Below, in pieces: positions 749-44,112 of a stretch of DNA of 64,000 bases (positions within the stretch are counted from its first letter, which is position 1; each line of letters begins with the position of its first letter). Origin of the DNA: Rikenellaceae bacterium (lineage in GTDB: Bacteria > Bacteroidota > Bacteroidia > Bacteroidales > Rikenellaceae); NCBI GenBank assembly GCA_902363575.1, contig CABJAJ010000002.1:558001-622000 (forward strand). The letters are read 5' to 3'. Position numbers and translations under genes: made by a program. The notes under the pieces were generated by a model. The model was not told where the DNA came from, ran no database searches, and worked only from the letters and a program-made list of their open reading frames with translations.

Positions 749-2617
749 TCAGGACAGGGGGCCCAGATCTTCGGCCACGATGTCCTCCTCGATGCGCAGG
801 TTGTCGATGATGAAGCCCTGCCGCTCGTAGCTGTTCTTGCCCATGTAGAACTCCAGCATGTCGTGAATGGGATCGTCCTTCGTCAGACGCACCCGGTCAA
901 GACGCATCCCCTCGCCGATGAATTCGCGGAACTCGTCAGGAGAGATCTCTCCCAGGCCCTTGAAGCGGGTGATCTCGGGGTTGGCGCCCAGCCGTTTGAG
1001 CGCCCTTTGGCGCTCCTCCTCCGAATAGCAGTAAACCGTCTCCTTGCGGTTGCGCACGCGGAACAGCGGGGTCTGCAGCACGAACAGGTGGCCGCCCCGG
1101 ATCACGTCGGGGAAAAACTGGAGGAAAAAGGTCATCAGCAGCAGGCGGATGTGCATGCCGTCCACGTCGGCATCGGTGGCGATGACCACCTTGTTGTAGC
1201 GCAGGTTGTCCATGTCCTCCTCGATGTTGAGGGCGGCCTGCAGGAGATTGAACTCCTCGTTCTCATAGACGACCTTCTTGGTCAGCCCGAAGCAGTTGAG
1301 CGGCTTTCCGCGGAGCGAGAAGACGGCTTGCGTGCGCACGTCGCGGCTCTTGGTGATCGACCCGGAGGCCGAGTTGCCCTCCGTAATGAAGATCATCGAC
1401 TGCTCGGCATCGTCGCACCTGTCCGTGAGGTGGACTTTGCAGTCCCGCAGCTTGCGGTTGTTGAGCGAAACCTTTTTGGCCGTTTCGCGGGCCTTTTTCT
1501 GGATGCCCGAAATGGCCTTTCGCTCCTTCTCGTTCTCGACGATCTTGCGCTGGATGGTCTGGGCCGTGTCGGGATGCTTGTGCAGGTAATTGTCGAGCTG
1601 CTGACCGAGGAAATCGACCACGAAATTGCGCATCGAGACCCCCGGCTCGATCTCCTTCGACCCGAGCTTGATTTTGGTCTGCGACTCGAAAACCGGGTCG
1701 TTCACCTTGACCGAGATGGCCGCGATGATGGAGGTGCGGACGTCCGAAGGATCGTAGTCCTTGTGGTAAAACTCCTTGAGCGTCTTGGCGATCGCCTCGC
1801 GGAAAGCCGTCTGGTGGGTGCCTCCCTGCGAGGTGTACTGTCCGTTCACGAACGAGAAATAGCTCTCCCCGTAACCCGTTCCGTGGGTAATGGCCACCTC
1901 GATATCCGTGCCCGAGAGGTGGATCGGCGCATAGAGCGGCTCCTCGGTCATGTTCTCGTAGAGCAGGTCGAGCAGGCCGTTTTTCGAGACATAGGCATTG
2001 CCGTTGAACCGGAACGTGAGCCCCAGGTTGAGGTAGGTGTAGTTGCGGATCATCTGCTCGACGTACTCCGTATTGTAGGCGTAGTCGCCGAAGACCTCGC
2101 GATCGACGCGGAAGCGGATGAGCGTGCCGTTTTTCTCCTCCACGCCGCTCTCCCACCGGTCGCTCTGCTCGATGCCTTGCGAAAAGGTGACCGTGCGAGC
2201 CTCGCCGTCGCGCACCGAACGCGCTTCAAACAGGCTCGAAAGCATGTTCACCGCCTTGACGCCGACCCCGTTCAGACCCACCGTCTTTTTGAATGCCGAG
2301 CCGCCGTACTTGCCGCCCGTGTTCATCTCGCTCACCGCCGCGGCGAGCGACTTGAGGGGAATACCGCGCCCGTAGTCGCGCACCGAGACCACGTCGTCCT
2401 CGATCTTCACGTCGATCTGCCGCCCCGCCCCCATGATGAATTCATCGACCGAGTTGTCGATCACCTCCTTGACGAGCACGTAAATCCCGTCGTCCGCCTG
2501 CGAGCCGTCGCCCAGCTTGCCGATATACATGCCCGGCCTGAGGCGGATGTGCTCGCGCGGCGAAAGGGTGACGATCGCATCGTCGCCGTAATTGTCCGTA
2601 TGTAAAGTTTCTGCCAT
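749..2617 (-). CDS. parE: DNA topoisomerase IV subunit B
   Basis: This is the 622-residue ATPase subunit of topoisomerase IV. The GHKL ATPase region shows [15 protein letters not shown] and [11 protein letters not shown]. The transducer domain follows, then the TOPRIM domain with EGNSASG and DADVDGMH, and the RFKGLGE motif near the C-terminus. The length fits the compact ParE type rather than the longer GyrB. It lies 6 bp downstream of the acyltransferase gene and 15 bp upstream of parC, forming one operon. Confidence 0.96.
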
Positions 2618-15622: not shown

Positions 15623-18088
15623 ATGGCAGGACAGCAAACTCCCAACTTCAACCAGCCCGGCGGCGCTCCCCAGAGCGACAACGTGTCGTTTTCGCTCCAC
15701 GACATCATCCAGCTGGTACTGGCCAACTGGTACTGGTTCGTGCTCTCGGTCGTCATCTGCGTGGCTTGCGGCTACGTCTATATCGCCCGCACGCCCAAGG
15801 TGTACAGCCGCACGGCCAACATTCTGGTCAAGGACAGCCGCAAAGGCGGCGACACCGACCTGGCGTCGTTCAGCGACCTGGCCGGCATCAGCGCCCGCCG
15901 CAATGTGGACAATGAAATCTACATCCTCCAGTCGCGGCGCCTGATGCGGGAGGTCGTCCGTCGGCTCGGGCTGACGGTCAGCTACTCCGTGGACGAAAAG
16001 TTCCGCGCACGCGACCTGTACGGCCAATCCCCGATCCACATCGATTTCATCAACGACAACGACGCACAAAACCTCTCGTTCGAGGTGACCCTGCTTCCCG
16101 ACAGCGCCATCCGGCTCGGGGCTTTCGACGCCGCTTTGCTGAGCAAGGAGGATACGCGCCGCAGCATCACCGCACGGTTGGGCGACACGGTCAGCACGCC
16201 CCTGGGACAGCTCATCGTCCGACCGACGCTCTACCTGTCGCCGGCCTACCTGTCCTCGACCATCCGGATCAGCAAGGGCAATCTGGACGCCGTAACCGAT
16301 GCCTACCGGGGAGCGGTCAAGAGCGTGGTGGCCAACAAGCAGGCTTCGATCATCACCATCTCGATGAACAACACCGTGCCCCGCCGGGCCGAGGACGTCA
16401 TCAATACGCTCATTGCGGTTTACGAGGAGGACGCCGTCGCCGACAAGCGGAGCATCGCGCAGAATACGAGCGAATTCATCGAAAACCGGCTTCAGGTGAT
16501 CGGCCGCGAACTCGGCATGGTCGATAAGAACATCGAGCGGTTCAAGCAGACCAACAGGATGTACGACATCACCACCGAGGCTGCCCGCACGCTGGCCGAA
16601 AGCACGAAATACAAAAACGAAGGGCTCTCGGTGGAAAATCAGATCCGGATGGCGGAGTTCCTCAAGGAATACCTGCTCGACGCATCCAAAATCAACGAGC
16701 TGATTCCGGCCACCGTCTCGATCGCCAACAGCGCGATCGCCGACCAGATCGCCTCCTACAACGAGGCAGTGCTCCGCCGCGCCAAGCTGATGACCGACAG
16801 TTCGGAAAACAACCCAGTCATCCTCGACCTGGACAACGGACTGGTGGCGGTGAGACGGGCCATCATCGCCTCGCTCGACTCCCACATCTCGACGCTGGGC
16901 ATCCAGCTCGACGCCATGCGCCGGGAGGAGGCCATGGCCAACCGCCGCATTTCGTCGGTGCCTTCGCAGGAGAAGGAGATTCTCGACATCACGCGCCAGC
17001 AGAAAATCAAGGAGGAGCTCTACCTGTACCTGCTCAACAAGCGCGAGGAGAACGCCCTCACGATGGTCATTACGGAGAGTAATTCCCGCACGATCGACAA
17101 TGCGTTCGGGTCGTCCAACCCCCTGTTCCCCAACAAATCGATGATCCTCGCGATCGCCATTCTGTTCGGGTTGGCCATTCCCTTCCTGATTATCTACATG
17201 CTCGAAATCCTCGACACGACCATCCGCGGCCGCAAAGACCTCGAGGATCGGCTGAGCATTCCTTTCCTGGGCGACATCCCGGAGTACACGGGCGCCATGC
17301 AGCGCGGAGGGGTCGTGGTGCGGGAAAACGGCCGCGACGCCGTGTCGGAAGCTTTCCGCATCCTGCGCTCGAACATGAGTTTTATGAACGTCAATTCGCG
17401 TCCGCAGCAGGTCATCATGGTCACCTCGTCCAACCCGCACGCCGGCAAGACGTTCGTCTCGACCAACCTGGCCATGACCCTCGCCCTGACCGGGAAACGG
17501 GTCATCCTGATCGACCTGGACCTGCGCCGCCGCACCTTCACCAAGCAGATGGGCCGCGCCGGAAACACGGTGGGGATCACCAATTACCTCTCGGGCAACA
17601 GTACGGCGGAGGAGATCGTGCACAAAAGCAGCCTCAACAACAACCTCGACATCATCTACTCGGGGCCGCAGCCGCCCAATCCGGGTGAGATGCTGCTGAG
17701 CGAACAGCTCGACAAGCTGATGGAACAACTGCGGGCCCGGTACGATTACGTGATTATCGACAGCGTGCCGGCCATGGCCGTTGCCGACGCCATGATTACC
17801 GACCGGCTCTCCGACCTCTGCATCTATGTCATCCGCGAAGGGCTTCTGGACCGCCGCCAACTTCCCGACATCGAGAGACTCTACCGGGAAAAGAAACTCC
17901 GCAACATGTGCACCGTGCTCAACGGCACCCGCATATCCCGCCACAACTACGGTTACGGATATGGATACGGGTACGGGTACAGCGGCTACGGATACGGTCT
18001 CTACAACGAGGACGAGGCGGCACAGCGCAAAAAGGGTTGGCGCAATCGAATCCGCAGCGTCTGGCACAAACTCACCCGCAAGCGATAA
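15623..18088 (+). CDS. Polysaccharide co-polymerase / tyrosine autokinase (Wzc-like)
   Basis: This 821-residue inner-membrane protein has a Wzz domain with spans at about 33-52 and 512-532 around a large periplasmic coiled region. The cytoplasmic BY-kinase domain has a Walker A at NPHAGKT (Lys609) and the kinase-specific second motif LIDLDLRR (631-636). A tyrosine cluster of alternating Tyr-Gly lies at about 776-796 and is the likely autophosphorylation site. Such kinases control polysaccharide chain length and assembly. The gene is coupled to the Wza-like gene upstream and lies 3 bp before a small HAD gene. Confidence 0.94.
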   Translation: MAGQQTPNFNQPGGAPQSDNVSFSLHDIIQLVLANWYWFVLSVVICVACGYVYIARTPKVYSRTANILVKDSRKGGDTDLASFSDLAGISARRNVDNEIYILQSRRLMREVVRRLGLTVSYSVDEKFRARDLYGQSPIHIDFINDNDAQNLSFEVTLLPDSAIRLGAFDAALLSKEDTRRSITARLGDTVSTPLGQLIVRPTLYLSPAYLSSTIRISKGNLDAVTDAYRGAVKSVVANKQASIITISMNNTVPRRAEDVINTLIAVYEEDAVADKRSIAQNTSEFIENRLQVIGRELGMVDKNIERFKQTNRMYDITTEAARTLAESTKYKNEGLSVENQIRMAEFLKEYLLDASKINELIPATVSIANSAIADQIASYNEAVLRRAKLMTDSSENNPVILDLDNGLVAVRRAIIASLDSHISTLGIQLDAMRREEAMANRRISSVPSQEKEILDITRQQKIKEELYLYLLNKREENALTMVITESNSRTIDNAFGSSNPLFPNKSMILAIAILFGLAIPFLIIYMLEILDTTIRGRKDLEDRLSIPFLGDIPEYTGAMQRGGVVVRENGRDAVSEAFRILRSNMSFMNVNSRPQQVIMVTSSNPHAGKTFVSTNLAMTLALTGKRVILIDLDLRRRTFTKQMGRAGNTVGITNYLSGNSTAEEIVHKSSLNNNLDIIYSGPQPPNPGEMLLSEQLDKLMEQLRARYDYVIIDSVPAMAVADAMITDRLSDLCIYVIREGLLDRRQLPDIERLYREKKLRNMCTVLNGTRISRHNYGYGYGYGYGYSGYGYGLYNEDEAAQRKKGWRNRIRSVWHKLTRKR

Positions 18089-41660: not shown

Positions 41661-41864
41661 GATTCGGTCGGAATTGGGCCATAAAAATAGCCACAAAGCG
41701 GCGTTTGTAACCTCTTTGTCACACAGAGTTAACACAAACTTAACACGCGTGTCGCGACGCAAACGCGCACAACACCCTGTTTTTCACGCGGCATGCACCG
41801 TTCCGGACGCGGCCGAAGCAGGAACCTGCCGGCCCGAGCCGGACAAACCGAACGCACGGGATGC

Positions 41865-41895
41865 AAAAAACCGGGGCGGCCGACCGGCCGCCCCG
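41865..41895 (-). terminator. Terminator of the FKBP-lipoprotein operon
   Basis: A perfect 11-bp GC stem (41872-41882 with 41885-41895) with a minimal loop, followed on the minus strand by T6 (41870-41865). Confidence 0.85.
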
Positions 41896-41972
41896 ATTAT
41901 CGTATCCGCAACGAAGTCGCCGACGGGCCCGAGCCCGATGGACGGGCGAAGGCGCACCGGCTTCGCGTCGCA

Positions 41973-43454
41973 TCAATCCGCCTCGGGCTCGATGTAGATT
42001 TGGAAGAGCAACGGGGTGAAGGCCTGAATCTCGGTGGTCACCGTAGTCGTGGTGGTCGTGGTCTGATCGGTGGTCGTCGGATAATAATTGCCATAGTAAC
42101 CGCCCATGTAATTGCCGTAATAGCCGTTGTAATAGCCGCCGTAGTAGCTGTTCCCGTAATAACTGTTGTAGTAGTTATACATGTTGAGCATACTGGAGTA
42201 ATTGGCTCCCGACGAGGAGGAACTGGTATTCGTCTTGCCCGCCACTCCGGTCGTACCGTAAGCATTGGTCGAGGTGGTCAGCAGCGCGGCCCACTGGCCG
42301 AAGCGCAGATTGGGAATCGCATAGTACCAGGCCTGGATATTGTCGCCGCGGTCGTTCTCGGGCGAATAAGAGTAAACCGATCCCTTCTTCACCACTTCGC
42401 CATAGACGATCTTCTTCACCTCGTCGATATTGGTGTCCACGACGAAGCCGTCGAGAAAACGGCAGATGTACCAGATTTTGGCCCTGCCCTCCAGCTCGAC
42501 CGCATTGCCCATGAGCGTACCCACCCCGAAACGTTCGAGCAGAGCTTCGTTGATCCTGCGGTCGATCTCCTGCGTCTTGGCCTCGTCCGTGAAATAGGGG
42601 TCGGCATAGCGGAAAAGCGAATCCGTGCGCGTGCTGGGGAAATAAGTGCGGTAAACATAGAGCTGGGGAATCGTATCGGCCACAGACTGCCATGCGTATC
42701 CGGCATCGCCGAGGCCATCCCCGTCACGGCCCGCGCCGTGCCGCGCCATCCGGTCCGATGCGCCGACACCCACGGGCGGCAGCAGTCCGCCGTTGTCCCG
42801 GGCGAACGCATCCACCTTTTCGCCCTCGGCCTCGAGGGGGTTTTTGACCATGCCCGTCACCTTCATCCGAGCCATCAGCGGACGGTTGGCATCGAGCGAA
42901 TACTGCCCCTCGTAACCGCCCGTCCCGACGAGCGAGCCGACTACGGTCGAAGGCATGTACAACATCACCTCCGTCCCCAGCCGCATTTCGACCGTGGTGG
43001 GGTATCCGTGCTCGCGGGCATACTCCTCGCCGAGCGTCAGCGGGTTGCGCATGGCCAGATAGGAGCCCTCGACGATGCTCTGGTTCACCTCTCCGCAATA
43101 GCGGAAGAACGGCACATAGTGGGTGTAGGGCGTGAAGGTTCCCTGCTGCAGCGCGTAGAGGGAGTCGCGGGTGAGGCACACCTCGCCCGCGATGGTGCGG
43201 CCCGTAAACTCGAAGCTCACCCAGTAAATCGTATCGCGGATCGGCGCGCTGTCCGGATCGCCGAGCGAAAGCACGTCCACATAATACGCCCCGTCGGACT
43301 GGTAGTTCTCCACTAATTTCGGGCGGTGCAGCTTCATCCACTCCCGCAGCGAGCGGTATTCCACCCCCTCGGCGGAGTCGGAGTGATCCTCGGCACAGGC
43401 GAAAAGCCCGGCCAGGCAGACGAGCGACATGCTCCAGCGTACAATTCGATTCAT
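41973..43454 (-). CDS. Lipoprotein with two FKBP-like domains and a Tyr-rich flap insertion
   Basis: This 493-residue lipoprotein (FAC lipobox, Cys20) shows two FKBP-type patterns. The first, about 55-235, is degenerate (FEFTGRTIAGEV, SIVEGSYLAM, LYMPSTVVG). The second, about 335-491, keeps DGFVVDTN, the IQAWYYAI segment with the pocket Trp, AYG at 398-400 and FTPLLFQI with the pocket Phe. Between AYG and FTPLLF, where FKBPs have a few residues, about 70 are inserted. They are Ser-rich, then Tyr/Asn/Gly-rich at 418-458 (DNA 42081-42203), then Thr-rich. The next gene upstream encodes a third FKBP-like domain. Domain calls are by pattern reading only. Confidence 0.72.
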   Translation of the reverse strand: MNRIVRWSMSLVCLAGLFACAEDHSDSAEGVEYRSLREWMKLHRPKLVENYQSDGAYYVDVLSLGDPDSAPIRDTIYWVSFEFTGRTIAGEVCLTRDSLYALQQGTFTPYTHYVPFFRYCGEVNQSIVEGSYLAMRNPLTLGEEYAREHGYPTTVEMRLGTEVMLYMPSTVVGSLVGTGGYEGQYSLDANRPLMARMKVTGMVKNPLEAEGEKVDAFARDNGGLLPPVGVGASDRMARHGAGRDGDGLGDAGYAWQSVADTIPQLYVYRTYFPSTRTDSLFRYADPYFTDEAKTQEIDRRINEALLERFGVGTLMGNAVELEGRAKIWYICRFLDGFVVDTNIDEVKKIVYGEVVKKGSVYSYSPENDRGDNIQAWYYAIPNLRFGQWAALLTTSTNAYGTTGVAGKTNTSSSSSGANYSSMLNMYNYYNSYYGNSYYGGYYNGYYGNYMGGYYGNYYPTTTDQTTTTTTTVTTEIQAFTPLLFQIYIEPEAD

Positions 43455-43461
43455 ATATCTG

Positions 43462-44112
43462 TCAATCTGTTTTTTCCACTTTGTCGATCGATACGAACCA
43501 CGCCACCGGACTGCGGTAGGGCACCACGCCGATCATCTCGTCGCCGTAGGCCATCGTATAGGTCATGTAGAGCTCCACCGTGTCGCGTTCGCGGCAGCCG
43601 GCGAGCGACTGGTCCAGTCCGGGTGCGGTCGTCCCGTCTCCCACGCGGAACGTGCGGGCCTCGAACGGCCAGTATTCGGTATTGAGTCCCGCCGCCTGGA
43701 GGATCCGCTCCCAGCGGGGTTCGTTGGTAAAGTAGGGCAGGTCGATGGTGCGCTTGCGTTCGATCATCTCCATCACCTGATCGTACTCGAAAGTAATGTT
43801 CTTAAATGCGAACTCGTAGCACCAGAGCGTGACGCTCACCCGATCGCCCCAATCGACCAGCACACGATCCTGCCGCTCGACATCGTAATAATGGCGGATG
43901 TAGCGGTAGGCCGTGTTGCCGAAAGCGGTGTAAAACTGAGGCTCCGTCTCAAGCGACGCCTCCGCCTCCTCTTCCGTCATCAGCCGGGGCTGATGGGTGC
44001 CCGAGAGATAGGAGGCCATTTTGCTTTGCTGACCGGGCAGTACGTCCTCTTCCGCACAGCCGCCGGCCATGCAGAGCGCACACAACGCTATGACGAACAA
44101 TCCGTATTTCAT
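43462..44112 (-). CDS. FKBP-like lipoprotein
   Basis: This 216-residue lipoprotein (lipobox AGGC, Cys19) ends in an FKBP-type pattern: WGDRVSVTLWCYEF, TFRVGDGTTAPGLDQSLAG, VELYMTYTMAYGDEMIG and SPVAWFVSIDKVEK. The pocket Trp is replaced by Leu in APGLDQSL, so isomerase activity may be weak or absent. The layout recalls GldI-type lipoproteins of Bacteroidetes. It is the first gene of a two-gene operon behind a good promoter. The ATG at 44112 is set by the signal peptide and the promoter 16 bp upstream. Confidence 0.72.
   Translation of the reverse strand: MKYGLFVIALCALCMAGGCAEEDVLPGQQSKMASYLSGTHQPRLMTEEEAEASLETEPQFYTAFGNTAYRYIRHYYDVERQDRVLVDWGDRVSVTLWCYEFAFKNITFEYDQVMEMIERKRTIDLPYFTNEPRWERILQAAGLNTEYWPFEARTFRVGDGTTAPGLDQSLAGCRERDTVELYMTYTMAYGDEMIGVVPYRSPVAWFVSIDKVEKTD

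What the first reader, a model, noticed from the sequence alone, without database searches (positions are those of the whole stretch)
41973..43454. Double FKBP-like lipoprotein with a Tyr/Asn/Gly-rich insertion in its flap
Seen: the second domain keeps FKBP pocket-type residues (DGFVVDTN, a Trp in IQAWYYAI, AYG at 398-400, Phe in FTPLLF), yet about 70 residues sit between AYG and FTPLLF where FKBPs have about five. Of these, 418-458 are almost only Tyr, Asn, Gly and Ser, then a Thr run follows. Known: flap loops of FKBPs carry chaperone or partner domains (IF domain of SlyD). Inference: a prion-like, adhesive or substrate-holding insertion on a periplasm- or surface-exposed isomerase.
Basis: partly seen in the sequence, partly recalled or inferred. 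Interest (0 to 1): 0.72.

Follow-up and report, generated by a model that had tools for sequence, protein, structure and literature searches.

The report
Surface isomerase with tyrosine-rich pocket flap
A gut bacterium's probably surface-anchored protein-folding enzyme carries, right beside its active pocket, a floppy but strongly conserved tyrosine-rich loop that resembles a loop of unknown function on the outer-membrane assembly machine of related bacteria, which suggests a shared and testable job.

Summary
Minus strand 43454..41973 encodes a 493-aa lipoprotein with two FKBP folds. Domain 2 keeps the FKBP pocket, but its flap (between AYG and LxF) is 81 residues against 13 in FKBP12; residues 418-458 are 90% Tyr/Asn/Gly/Ser. 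The flap is 72-96 residues in all 111 aligned rows (window plus 110 homologues). Its Tyr-rich core differs between relatives about as little as the folded body and is far above shuffled controls; it is modelled as disordered. In 800 kb sampled from two relatives no other ORF exceeds 10 Tyr in 40 residues. The family matches 171 of 180 genomes of the Alistipes genus and carries a surface-export signal. Published Bacteroides and Porphyromonas BAM complexes have surface PPIases facing a dome into which a disordered Tyr/Gly/Asn-rich BamA loop (EL3) probably projects. In 27 of 27 Rikenellaceae examined that loop is short; in 19 of them the Tyr-rich stretch sits on the FKBP flap. No genome of 69 has both; many have neither. 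I read the protein as an insert-in-flap surface isomerase that most likely acts in outer-membrane protein assembly. BAM association is inferred, not shown.

The parts
41973..43454 (-). Whole gene: 493-aa double-FKBP lipoprotein with Tyr/Asn/Gly-rich flap
   Evidence: ORF; homologues; model m4d5e6bc4abf4, mean pLDDT 81, pTM 0.80
43395..43454 (-). Signal peptide and lipobox, residues 1-20 (FAC; Cys20 invariant)
   Evidence: Cys20 invariant in the 111 rows of A1
43377..43394 (-). Residues 21-26 (AEDHSD) after the lipid Cys, three of them acidic, matching the lipoprotein export signal criterion
   Evidence: 99 of 112 homologues with a recognised lipobox (of 118 full-length ones) have two or more acidic residues in the six after Cys; criterion from PMC12578637 (passage)
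42843..43304 (-). Domain 1, residues ~51-204: FKBP fold with degenerate pocket
41976..42692 (-). Domain 2, residues ~255-493: FKBP fold with kept pocket
42012..42254 (-). Expanded flap, residues 401-481 between AYG and LxF
   Evidence: Length 72-96, median 84 in the 111 rows of A1; residues 406-428 and 430-468 have pLDDT under 50
42081..42203 (-). Tyr/Asn/Gly core of the flap, residues 418-458
   Evidence: 17 Tyr of 41, 10 of them in the 11 columns that are Tyr in 90% or more of 111 rows; the window has Met at the eleventh, 425
42033..42077 (-). Thr-rich linker, residues 460-474, returning to the FKBP strand
   Evidence: Sequence
43462..44112 (-). Small single-FKBP lipoprotein directly upstream, same strand (216 aa from the inner ATG; longest ORF to 44175)
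   Evidence: PF00254 E 2.2e-4 for the longest ORF; model mfd6e30081731 mean pLDDT 91.5; a small FKBP-like ORF lies directly upstream of the double FKBP in most loci looked at

Best explanation
A probably surface-displayed FKBP lipoprotein of Rikenellaceae whose second, pocket-bearing FKBP domain carries a Tyr/Asn/Gly loop, modelled as disordered but strongly conserved, in place of its flap. Shown by computation: the fold, the insertion site, conservation, constraint and near-universality in the genus. Inferred: the loop acts like the insert-in-flap domain of SlyD, as a flexible aromatic brush that holds unfolded chains next to the prolyl-isomerase pocket. Inferred further: the place of action is outer-membrane protein and surface-lipoprotein assembly, as a PPIase associated with the BAM dome, and the loop does in trans what the Tyr/Gly/Asn-rich EL3 loop of BamA does in Bacteroides and Porphyromonas.
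For: FKBP fold twice. Pocket kept in domain 2 and lost in domain 1. Insertion exactly between AYG and LxF. The Tyr core differs between relatives by 0.28 of residues, against 0.26 for the folded body and 0.45 for the adjacent Ser/Thr linker, over 160 pairs; core identity is 0.72 against 0.28 when each core is shuffled. 171 of 180 genus genomes match the family. Surface-lipoprotein signal in 99 of 112. Published BAM of B. thetaiotaomicron and P. gingivalis has two surface PPIases, BamJ and BamK, whose putative active sites face a dome into which a Tyr-rich, also Gly/Asn-enriched, unresolved BamA EL3 probably projects (PMC12578637). BamA EL3 is 15-19 aa with 1-3 Tyr in 27 of 27 Rikenellaceae, while 4 of 42 other Bacteroidales have 42-50 aa with 9-15 Tyr and 2 more have 5 Tyr. 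Of these six, five have no match to the double-FKBP profile and one has two weak ones. Flap Tyr-rich in 19 of 27 Rikenellaceae. In 800 kb sampled from two insert-bearing genomes no other ORF exceeds 10 Tyr in 40. DUF4827, the family of the BamK chain, is over threshold in 3 of the 5 Tyr-EL3 genomes tested and in 0 of 22 Rikenellaceae (see against).
Against: No physical or genetic link to BAM is shown, and no bam gene was seen beside it in the stretches read. Profile searches do not place the protein closer to BamJ or BamK than to FKBPs in general: 9his_I matched an insert-less relative at E 3.4e-4, behind 53 other sequences. 8 of 27 Rikenellaceae have neither loop, and 36 of 42 other Bacteroidales lack a Tyr-rich EL3 with no Tyr-rich flap seen, so the loop is not required for BAM. 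The exclusion rests on few independent events (the tree needs at least 2 changes of the flap state, and 1 is not ruled out). The DUF4827 search also missed the control genome Bacteroides ihuae, where a BamK would be expected, so its silence in Rikenellaceae is weak evidence. In the core, codon position 2 changes more than in the body (0.22 against 0.12). The window's own genome is not held, so its BamA was not seen. Low complexity alone can look alike by convergence.
Confidence: 0.4

Rival explanations
1. A stand-alone SlyD/FkpA-like folding catalyst of the cell envelope: the flap loop holds general clients, with no tie to BAM.
For: The insertion site equals that of SlyD's IF domain. FkpA, MIP and other FKBP folds match. 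Other Bacteroidales carry clusters of FKBP lipoproteins.
Against: Does not explain why the only similar loop met in the DNA fetched here is BamA EL3 and why the two were not found together.
Confidence: 0.31
2. An adhesive, matrix or phase-separating surface tract with little link to the isomerase.
For: Tyr/Gly/Asn-rich sequence modelled as disordered on a predicted surface lipoprotein.
Against: Sits in the flap next to the pocket in all 111 rows, its length is bounded at 72-96, and Tyr positions are in register; adhesive tracts usually vary in repeat number (recalled).
Confidence: 0.12
3. PPIase subunit of the type 9 secretion translocon.
Against: SprA (TIGR04189) is found in 0 of 12 Rikenellaceae against 15 of 15 other Bacteroidales in the same search, and in 0 of 61 genus genomes (a search without a positive control of its own). 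The window's own genome could not be searched.
Confidence: 0.02
4. Neutral low-complexity expansion without function.
For: Modelled disorder and biased composition.
Against: Conserved Tyr register (0.72 identity against 0.28 shuffled), divergence near that of the folded body, present in all 111 aligned rows.
Confidence: 0.05

Closest known systems
SlyD / SlpA insert-in-flap FKBPs
   Same: Insertion between AYG and LxF of an FKBP domain, next to the active pocket
   Different: SlyD's IF is a folded chaperone domain with a hydrophobic groove (PMC5034536, passages); here the insert is Tyr/Asn/Gly-rich and modelled as disordered, on a double-FKBP lipoprotein with a surface signal
BamJ (Bt3612) and BamK (Bt3949), PPIases of the Bacteroidota BAM dome; taken here as PDB chains 9his_I (196 aa, 'peptidyl-prolyl isomerase') and 9his_J (214 aa, 'DUF4827 domain-containing protein'), by elimination
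   Same: PPI fold, surface-lipoprotein signal, Bacteroidota. Profiles of the small partner and of the double FKBP both align with DUF4827 (hhalign 95.4%, E 1.7e-8; 94.9%, E 4.3e-8), with a weak DUF4827 profile of 3 sequences and the signal peptide included
   Different: Chain lengths fit one PPI fold each; no flap insertion described in the sections read; no specific sequence kinship shown
BamA extracellular loop EL3 of Bacteroides/Porphyromonas
   Same: 38-39 residues with 12-13 Tyr, enriched also in Gly and Asn, no cryo-EM density, thought to project into the BAM dome (PMC12578637)
   Different: Sits in a beta-barrel loop, not in an isomerase flap; no homology claimed, only composition and pattern
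BamM of F. johnsoniae and the T9SS translocon PPI (6h3i_B)
   Same: PPI fold in subunits of outer-membrane machines (PMC12611786, PMC10994853, passages)
   Different: No Tyr-rich flap mentioned in the passages read; full-length BamM homologues only in Flavobacterium (PMC12611786); SprA not found in Rikenellaceae

Membership tests
FKBP-type PPIase | FKBP fold | tested here: met
FKBP-type PPIase | Pocket residues equivalent to Y26, D37, W59, Y82, F99 (list recalled, equivalences by eye) | tested here: met
   Domain 2: Y 110/111, D 103/111, W 81 or F 30 of 111, Y 111/111, F 102/111. Not met in domain 1
FKBP-type PPIase | Sequence kinship to known FKBPs | tested here: met
   Through relatives: the A1 profile matches solved FKBPs from E 0.0019; 21 of 21 relatives in A3 match PF00254. 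The window protein alone gives no Pfam match at E up to 10
FKBP-type PPIase | Prolyl-isomerase activity | not testable with these tools
   Needs an assay
Insert-in-flap (SlyD type) | Insertion between AYG and LxF | tested here: met
   Residues 401-481; 72-96 residues in 111 rows; landmarks
Insert-in-flap (SlyD type) | Insert is a folded IF chaperone domain | tested here: inconclusive
   pLDDT under 50 for 406-428 and 430-468; a low score does not prove disorder
BAM dome PPIase (BamJ/BamK) | Surface-lipoprotein export signal (two or more acidic residues in six after Cys) | tested here: met
   AEDHSD in the window protein; 99 of 112 homologues
BAM dome PPIase (BamJ/BamK) | BamK identity: DUF4827 match | tested here: not met
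   No PF16109 hit at E up to 10 for the window protein or its small partner. Genome search: 0 of 22 Rikenellaceae, but the control Bacteroides ihuae did not ring either
BAM dome PPIase (BamJ/BamK) | BamJ kinship closer than to other FKBPs | tested here: inconclusive
   9his_I at E 3.4e-4 behind 53 other sequences; not in the rows shown
BAM dome PPIase (BamJ/BamK) | Physical association with BamA/BamG/BamH | not testable with these tools
   Needs pull-down or cryo-EM
T9SS translocon PPI | SprA present in the same genomes | tested here: not met
   0 of 12 Rikenellaceae against 15 of 15 others; 0 of 61 in the genus. Relatives only; the window's genome is not held

The most novel reading that the evidence does not exclude
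The Tyr/Asn/Gly-rich loop of the Bacteroidota BAM dome is a movable functional module, an aromatic brush for nascent outer-membrane strands or surface lipoproteins. Bacteroides and Porphyromonas carry it on BamA EL3, while Rikenellaceae carry it on the flap of a dome-associated prolyl isomerase, directly coupling client holding to proline isomerisation.
Probability: 0.28. Interest if true: 0.85.

Novelty: new variant of a known kind. Interest (0 to 1): 0.6.

Why it matters
The 2025 BtBAM/PgBAM paper calls the function of the Tyr-rich EL3 loop unclear and the dome's mechanism unknown. A lineage in which a loop of the same composition sits on an isomerase, and BamA lacks it, is a natural experiment: deleting or swapping the loop would test what it does. 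It would also be a flap insertion of a new type, constrained though apparently disordered, extending the insert-in-flap principle beyond folded chaperone domains. My literature searches found no paper describing it: 0 papers, 3 listed, only the BAM paper, and none among the 10 shown of 359. The library is open-access only.

Tried and rejected
T9SS translocon PPI: rejected, because SprA was not found in Rikenellaceae while the same search finds it in 15 of 15 other Bacteroidales.

Identity with BamK: rejected, no DUF4827 match of the protein or its partner. The genome search for DUF4827 is weaker, since it also missed the control Bacteroides ihuae; its two sub-threshold hits were G323 (E 0.0047) and G462 (E 0.0030, lying inside that genome's double FKBP). 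Identity with BamJ: not decided. Structural searches of both models returned FKBPs in general; no BtBAM or PgBAM chain was among the 50 rows shown, which excludes nothing.

Perfect complementarity of the two loops: rejected. They exclude each other in this sample (0 of 69 with both), but 8 Rikenellaceae have neither, and 36 of the 42 others lack a Tyr-rich EL3; I did not read every FKBP flap of those 36. The authors' logo of EL3 from 861 BlastP hits shows Tyr/Gly/Asn enrichment, so my sample, chosen partly by FKBP matches, may be poorer in Tyr-rich EL3 than theirs. G279 and G494 were searched for BamA but gave only weak hits to other parts of the family and were dropped.

Neutral low-complexity drift and assembly artefact: rejected on conservation.

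Loop detection by regular expression was unreliable and was replaced by alignment columns. The regular expression found both flap anchors in 93 of 121 proteins; the 28 others (among them the fragments P0005, P0006) were dropped there, and the alignment A1 was used instead: the window plus 110 of the 120 listed homologues (of 723 found), leaving out fragments and near-duplicates. In one search the codon test used the 20 of 23 sequences in which both anchors were found, and kept the 160 pairs with at most 35% body difference. In one search the upstream partner ORF was picked automatically and was wrong or missing for ten loci (L001, L002, L004, L008, L019, L027, L040, L075, L096, L097). In one search the automatic flap labels were wrong or missing for some rows and I set the groups by reading the sequences before the tree; five rows (L009, L094, L096, L099, L102) were left out of the tree.

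After a recheck I lowered the main confidence from 0.42 to 0.40 and the novel case from 0.30 to 0.28, because of the silent DUF4827 control.

Full report
WHAT IS THERE. The gene runs on the minus strand from 43454 to 41973 (493 aa). It starts with a signal peptide and lipobox (Cys20, invariant in the 111 rows of alignment A1, which are the window and 110 homologues) followed by AEDHSD. Two or more acidic residues within six of the Cys is the criterion that Silale et al. use for surface-exposed lipoproteins (PMC12578637, passage); 99 of 112 homologues with a recognised lipobox meet it. Neither Pfam nor NCBIfam names the protein at E up to 10, but 21 of 21 relatives in alignment A3 match FKBP_C. 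The nearest named homologues are Alistipes MAGs, and the tree puts the window among members of that genus; its own genome is not held.

THE FLAP. Zoldak et al. place the flap or insert-in-flap region between the conserved AYG (81-83) and LxF (97-99) of FKBP12 (PMC11013033, passages). Here AYG is 398-400 and LLF is 482-484, so the flap is 81 residues instead of 13. In the 111 rows it is 72-96 residues long (median 84) with 9-28 Tyr (median 21) and 1% Lys plus Arg. The Tyr are in register: 11 columns of the core (419, 425, 428, 432, 433, 438, 441, 442, 445, 446, 454) are Tyr in 90% or more of rows; the window has Tyr at 10 of them and Met at 425. From 432 on, Tyr pairs recur about every four residues with Gly/Asn/Ser/Asp varying between them. 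Over 160 pairs of loci with at most 35% body divergence, amino-acid differences are 0.28 in the core, 0.26 in the folded body and 0.45 in the Ser/Thr linker; codon positions 1, 2, 3 differ by 0.24, 0.22, 0.42 in the core and 0.21, 0.12, 0.38 in the body. Core identity is 0.72, against 0.28 when residues are shuffled within each core. This is constraint, not drift, although the core is somewhat freer than the body at codon position 2.

HOW UNUSUAL. In the window the next Tyr-dense stretch has 9 Tyr in 40, against 17 here. In 800 kb drawn from two insert-bearing genomes (2,872 ORFs of 100 aa or more, including spurious ones), only the two copies of this gene exceed 10 (16 and 22). One of these stretches was chosen to include the gene, the other included it by spacing. 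Among all loci fetched, an ORF with 12 or more Tyr in 40 occurred only in double-FKBP loci of Tyr-flap Rikenellaceae and in three BamA loci (L131, L137, L142); the loci were chosen around such genes.

DISTRIBUTION AND HISTORY. 171 of 180 genomes of the genus of G001 (an Alistipes MAG) match the family at E 0.001 or better, and 140 of 150 of its family, many only distantly. Outside, full double FKBPs occur in some other Bacteroidales; those read have no Tyr-rich flap. Among 27 Rikenellaceae genomes examined in detail the flap is Tyr-rich in 19, short in 7 and longer but not Tyr-dense in 1 (G216). A tree of 69 rows, with the flaps cut out, groups 41 of the 43 Tyr-flap rows (support 91/86) and places two (G249, G266) apart in an unresolved fork; at least two changes are needed, but one origin is not ruled out. 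A small FKBP-like lipoprotein lies directly upstream in most loci looked at and in the window (43462..44112). Its model is a confident FKBP (pLDDT 91.5), and it aligns with the N-terminal part of the double-FKBP profile (hhalign 99%, E 5.5e-20, signal peptide included).

THE LINK TO BAM. Cryo-EM of B. thetaiotaomicron and P. gingivalis BAM shows an extracellular dome of surface lipoproteins that includes two PPIases, BamJ and BamK, with putative active sites facing inward. BamA there has a 38-39 residue extracellular loop EL3 with 12-13 Tyr, also enriched in Gly and Asn, without density and of unclear function, probably projecting into the dome (PMC12578637: outline with abstract, passages, and the sections on BtBAM, PgBAM, discussion, extended-data legends and data availability). 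F. johnsoniae BAM has another PPI-fold surface lipoprotein, BamM (PMC12611786, passages). I collected BamA from 69 genomes and cut EL3 by alignment columns. In 27 of 27 Rikenellaceae EL3 is 15-19 residues with 1-3 Tyr. In 42 other Bacteroidales, chosen partly for having or lacking FKBP matches, four have 42-50 residues with 9-15 Tyr (G296, G293, G289, G287), two have 5 Tyr (G297, G323) and 36 have 0-4. Of the six Tyr-bearing genomes, five have no match to the double-FKBP profile A2 and G297 has two weak ones, the listed one in a 183-aa ORF. So Tyr-rich flap and Tyr-rich EL3 were not found together in any of 69; 19 have the first, 4 to 6 the second; in the rest neither was seen, though not every FKBP flap outside Rikenellaceae was read. 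Examples of the shared grammar: flap in locus L018, SYMGGYYNPYYGYGGYGYGYGYG; EL3 in G293, YYNNNWYNPYMYGGYGYGYGYG. I take BamK to be the DUF4827 chain of 9his/9hj3 and 9hjm, by elimination. DUF4827 is over threshold in 3 of 32 genomes, all three with a Tyr-rich EL3, and in 0 of 22 Rikenellaceae; but the control Bacteroides ihuae did not ring either, so the silence is weak evidence.

LIMITS. This is a correlation over few independent events. Neither the double FKBP nor its partner is shown to be closer in sequence to BamJ/BamK than to FKBPs in general; the profile matches of the small partner and of the double FKBP to DUF4827 (95.4% and 94.9%) rest on three DUF4827 sequences and include the signal peptide.

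MECHANISM PROPOSED. Shown: a lipoprotein with a surface signal; a degenerate FKBP domain, then a pocket-bearing one; a constrained Tyr loop in the flap. Inferred: the loop, tethered at both sides next to the pocket, binds exposed beta-strand segments weakly through many Tyr side chains and raises their local concentration at the isomerase, as IF domains do for unfolded chains in SlyD (PMC5034536, passages). Inferred with less certainty: the clients are outer-membrane barrels and surface lipoproteins emerging at BamA. The T9SS alternative fails because SprA was not found in Rikenellaceae (0 of 12 against 15 of 15 in the same search; 0 of 61).

VERDICT. The protein is a new variant of a known kind (insert-in-flap FKBP), with a specific, testable and unproven link to the Bacteroidota BAM dome.

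Noticed in passing
window 15623..18088 (+), C-terminal end about 17948-18067: Wzz/GNVR/AAA_31 protein, likely a polysaccharide-chain-length tyrosine kinase, with a short Tyr/Gly-rich tail (YGYGYGYGYGYSGYGYG); next most Tyr-dense stretch of the window
   Followed up: no
window 41793..43316 (+): A 507-aa ORF runs antisense through most of the gene; probably an effect of 62% GC, not a gene
   Followed up: no
L040, L041, L042, L226, L227: These Rikenellaceae double FKBPs with short flaps carry an extra C-terminal part of roughly 120-150 residues (for example VWITGYVVG in L042) that the Tyr-flap members read here lack
   Followed up: no
L028 (G222), C-terminal part of the 571-aa ORF: One Tyr-flap member has an added C-terminal part of about 110 residues (VGQWRLTNRE...), perhaps lipocalin-like (by eye only)
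   Followed up: no
L077, L078, L080, L082, L085-L091: Other Bacteroidales have two or three adjacent FKBP lipoprotein genes, several of them double FKBPs
   Followed up: partly
e.g. G056, G078, G032, G059: Several genus members show one in-frame stop inside or at the edge of the match; not checked whether it is just the match running past the end
   Followed up: no
L152 (G287), 1453..2061 (-): A DUF4827 (BamK-family) protein of a genome with Tyr-rich EL3 also has a small Tyr cluster (ESYYNTDYSYYYQEYMF)
   Followed up: no
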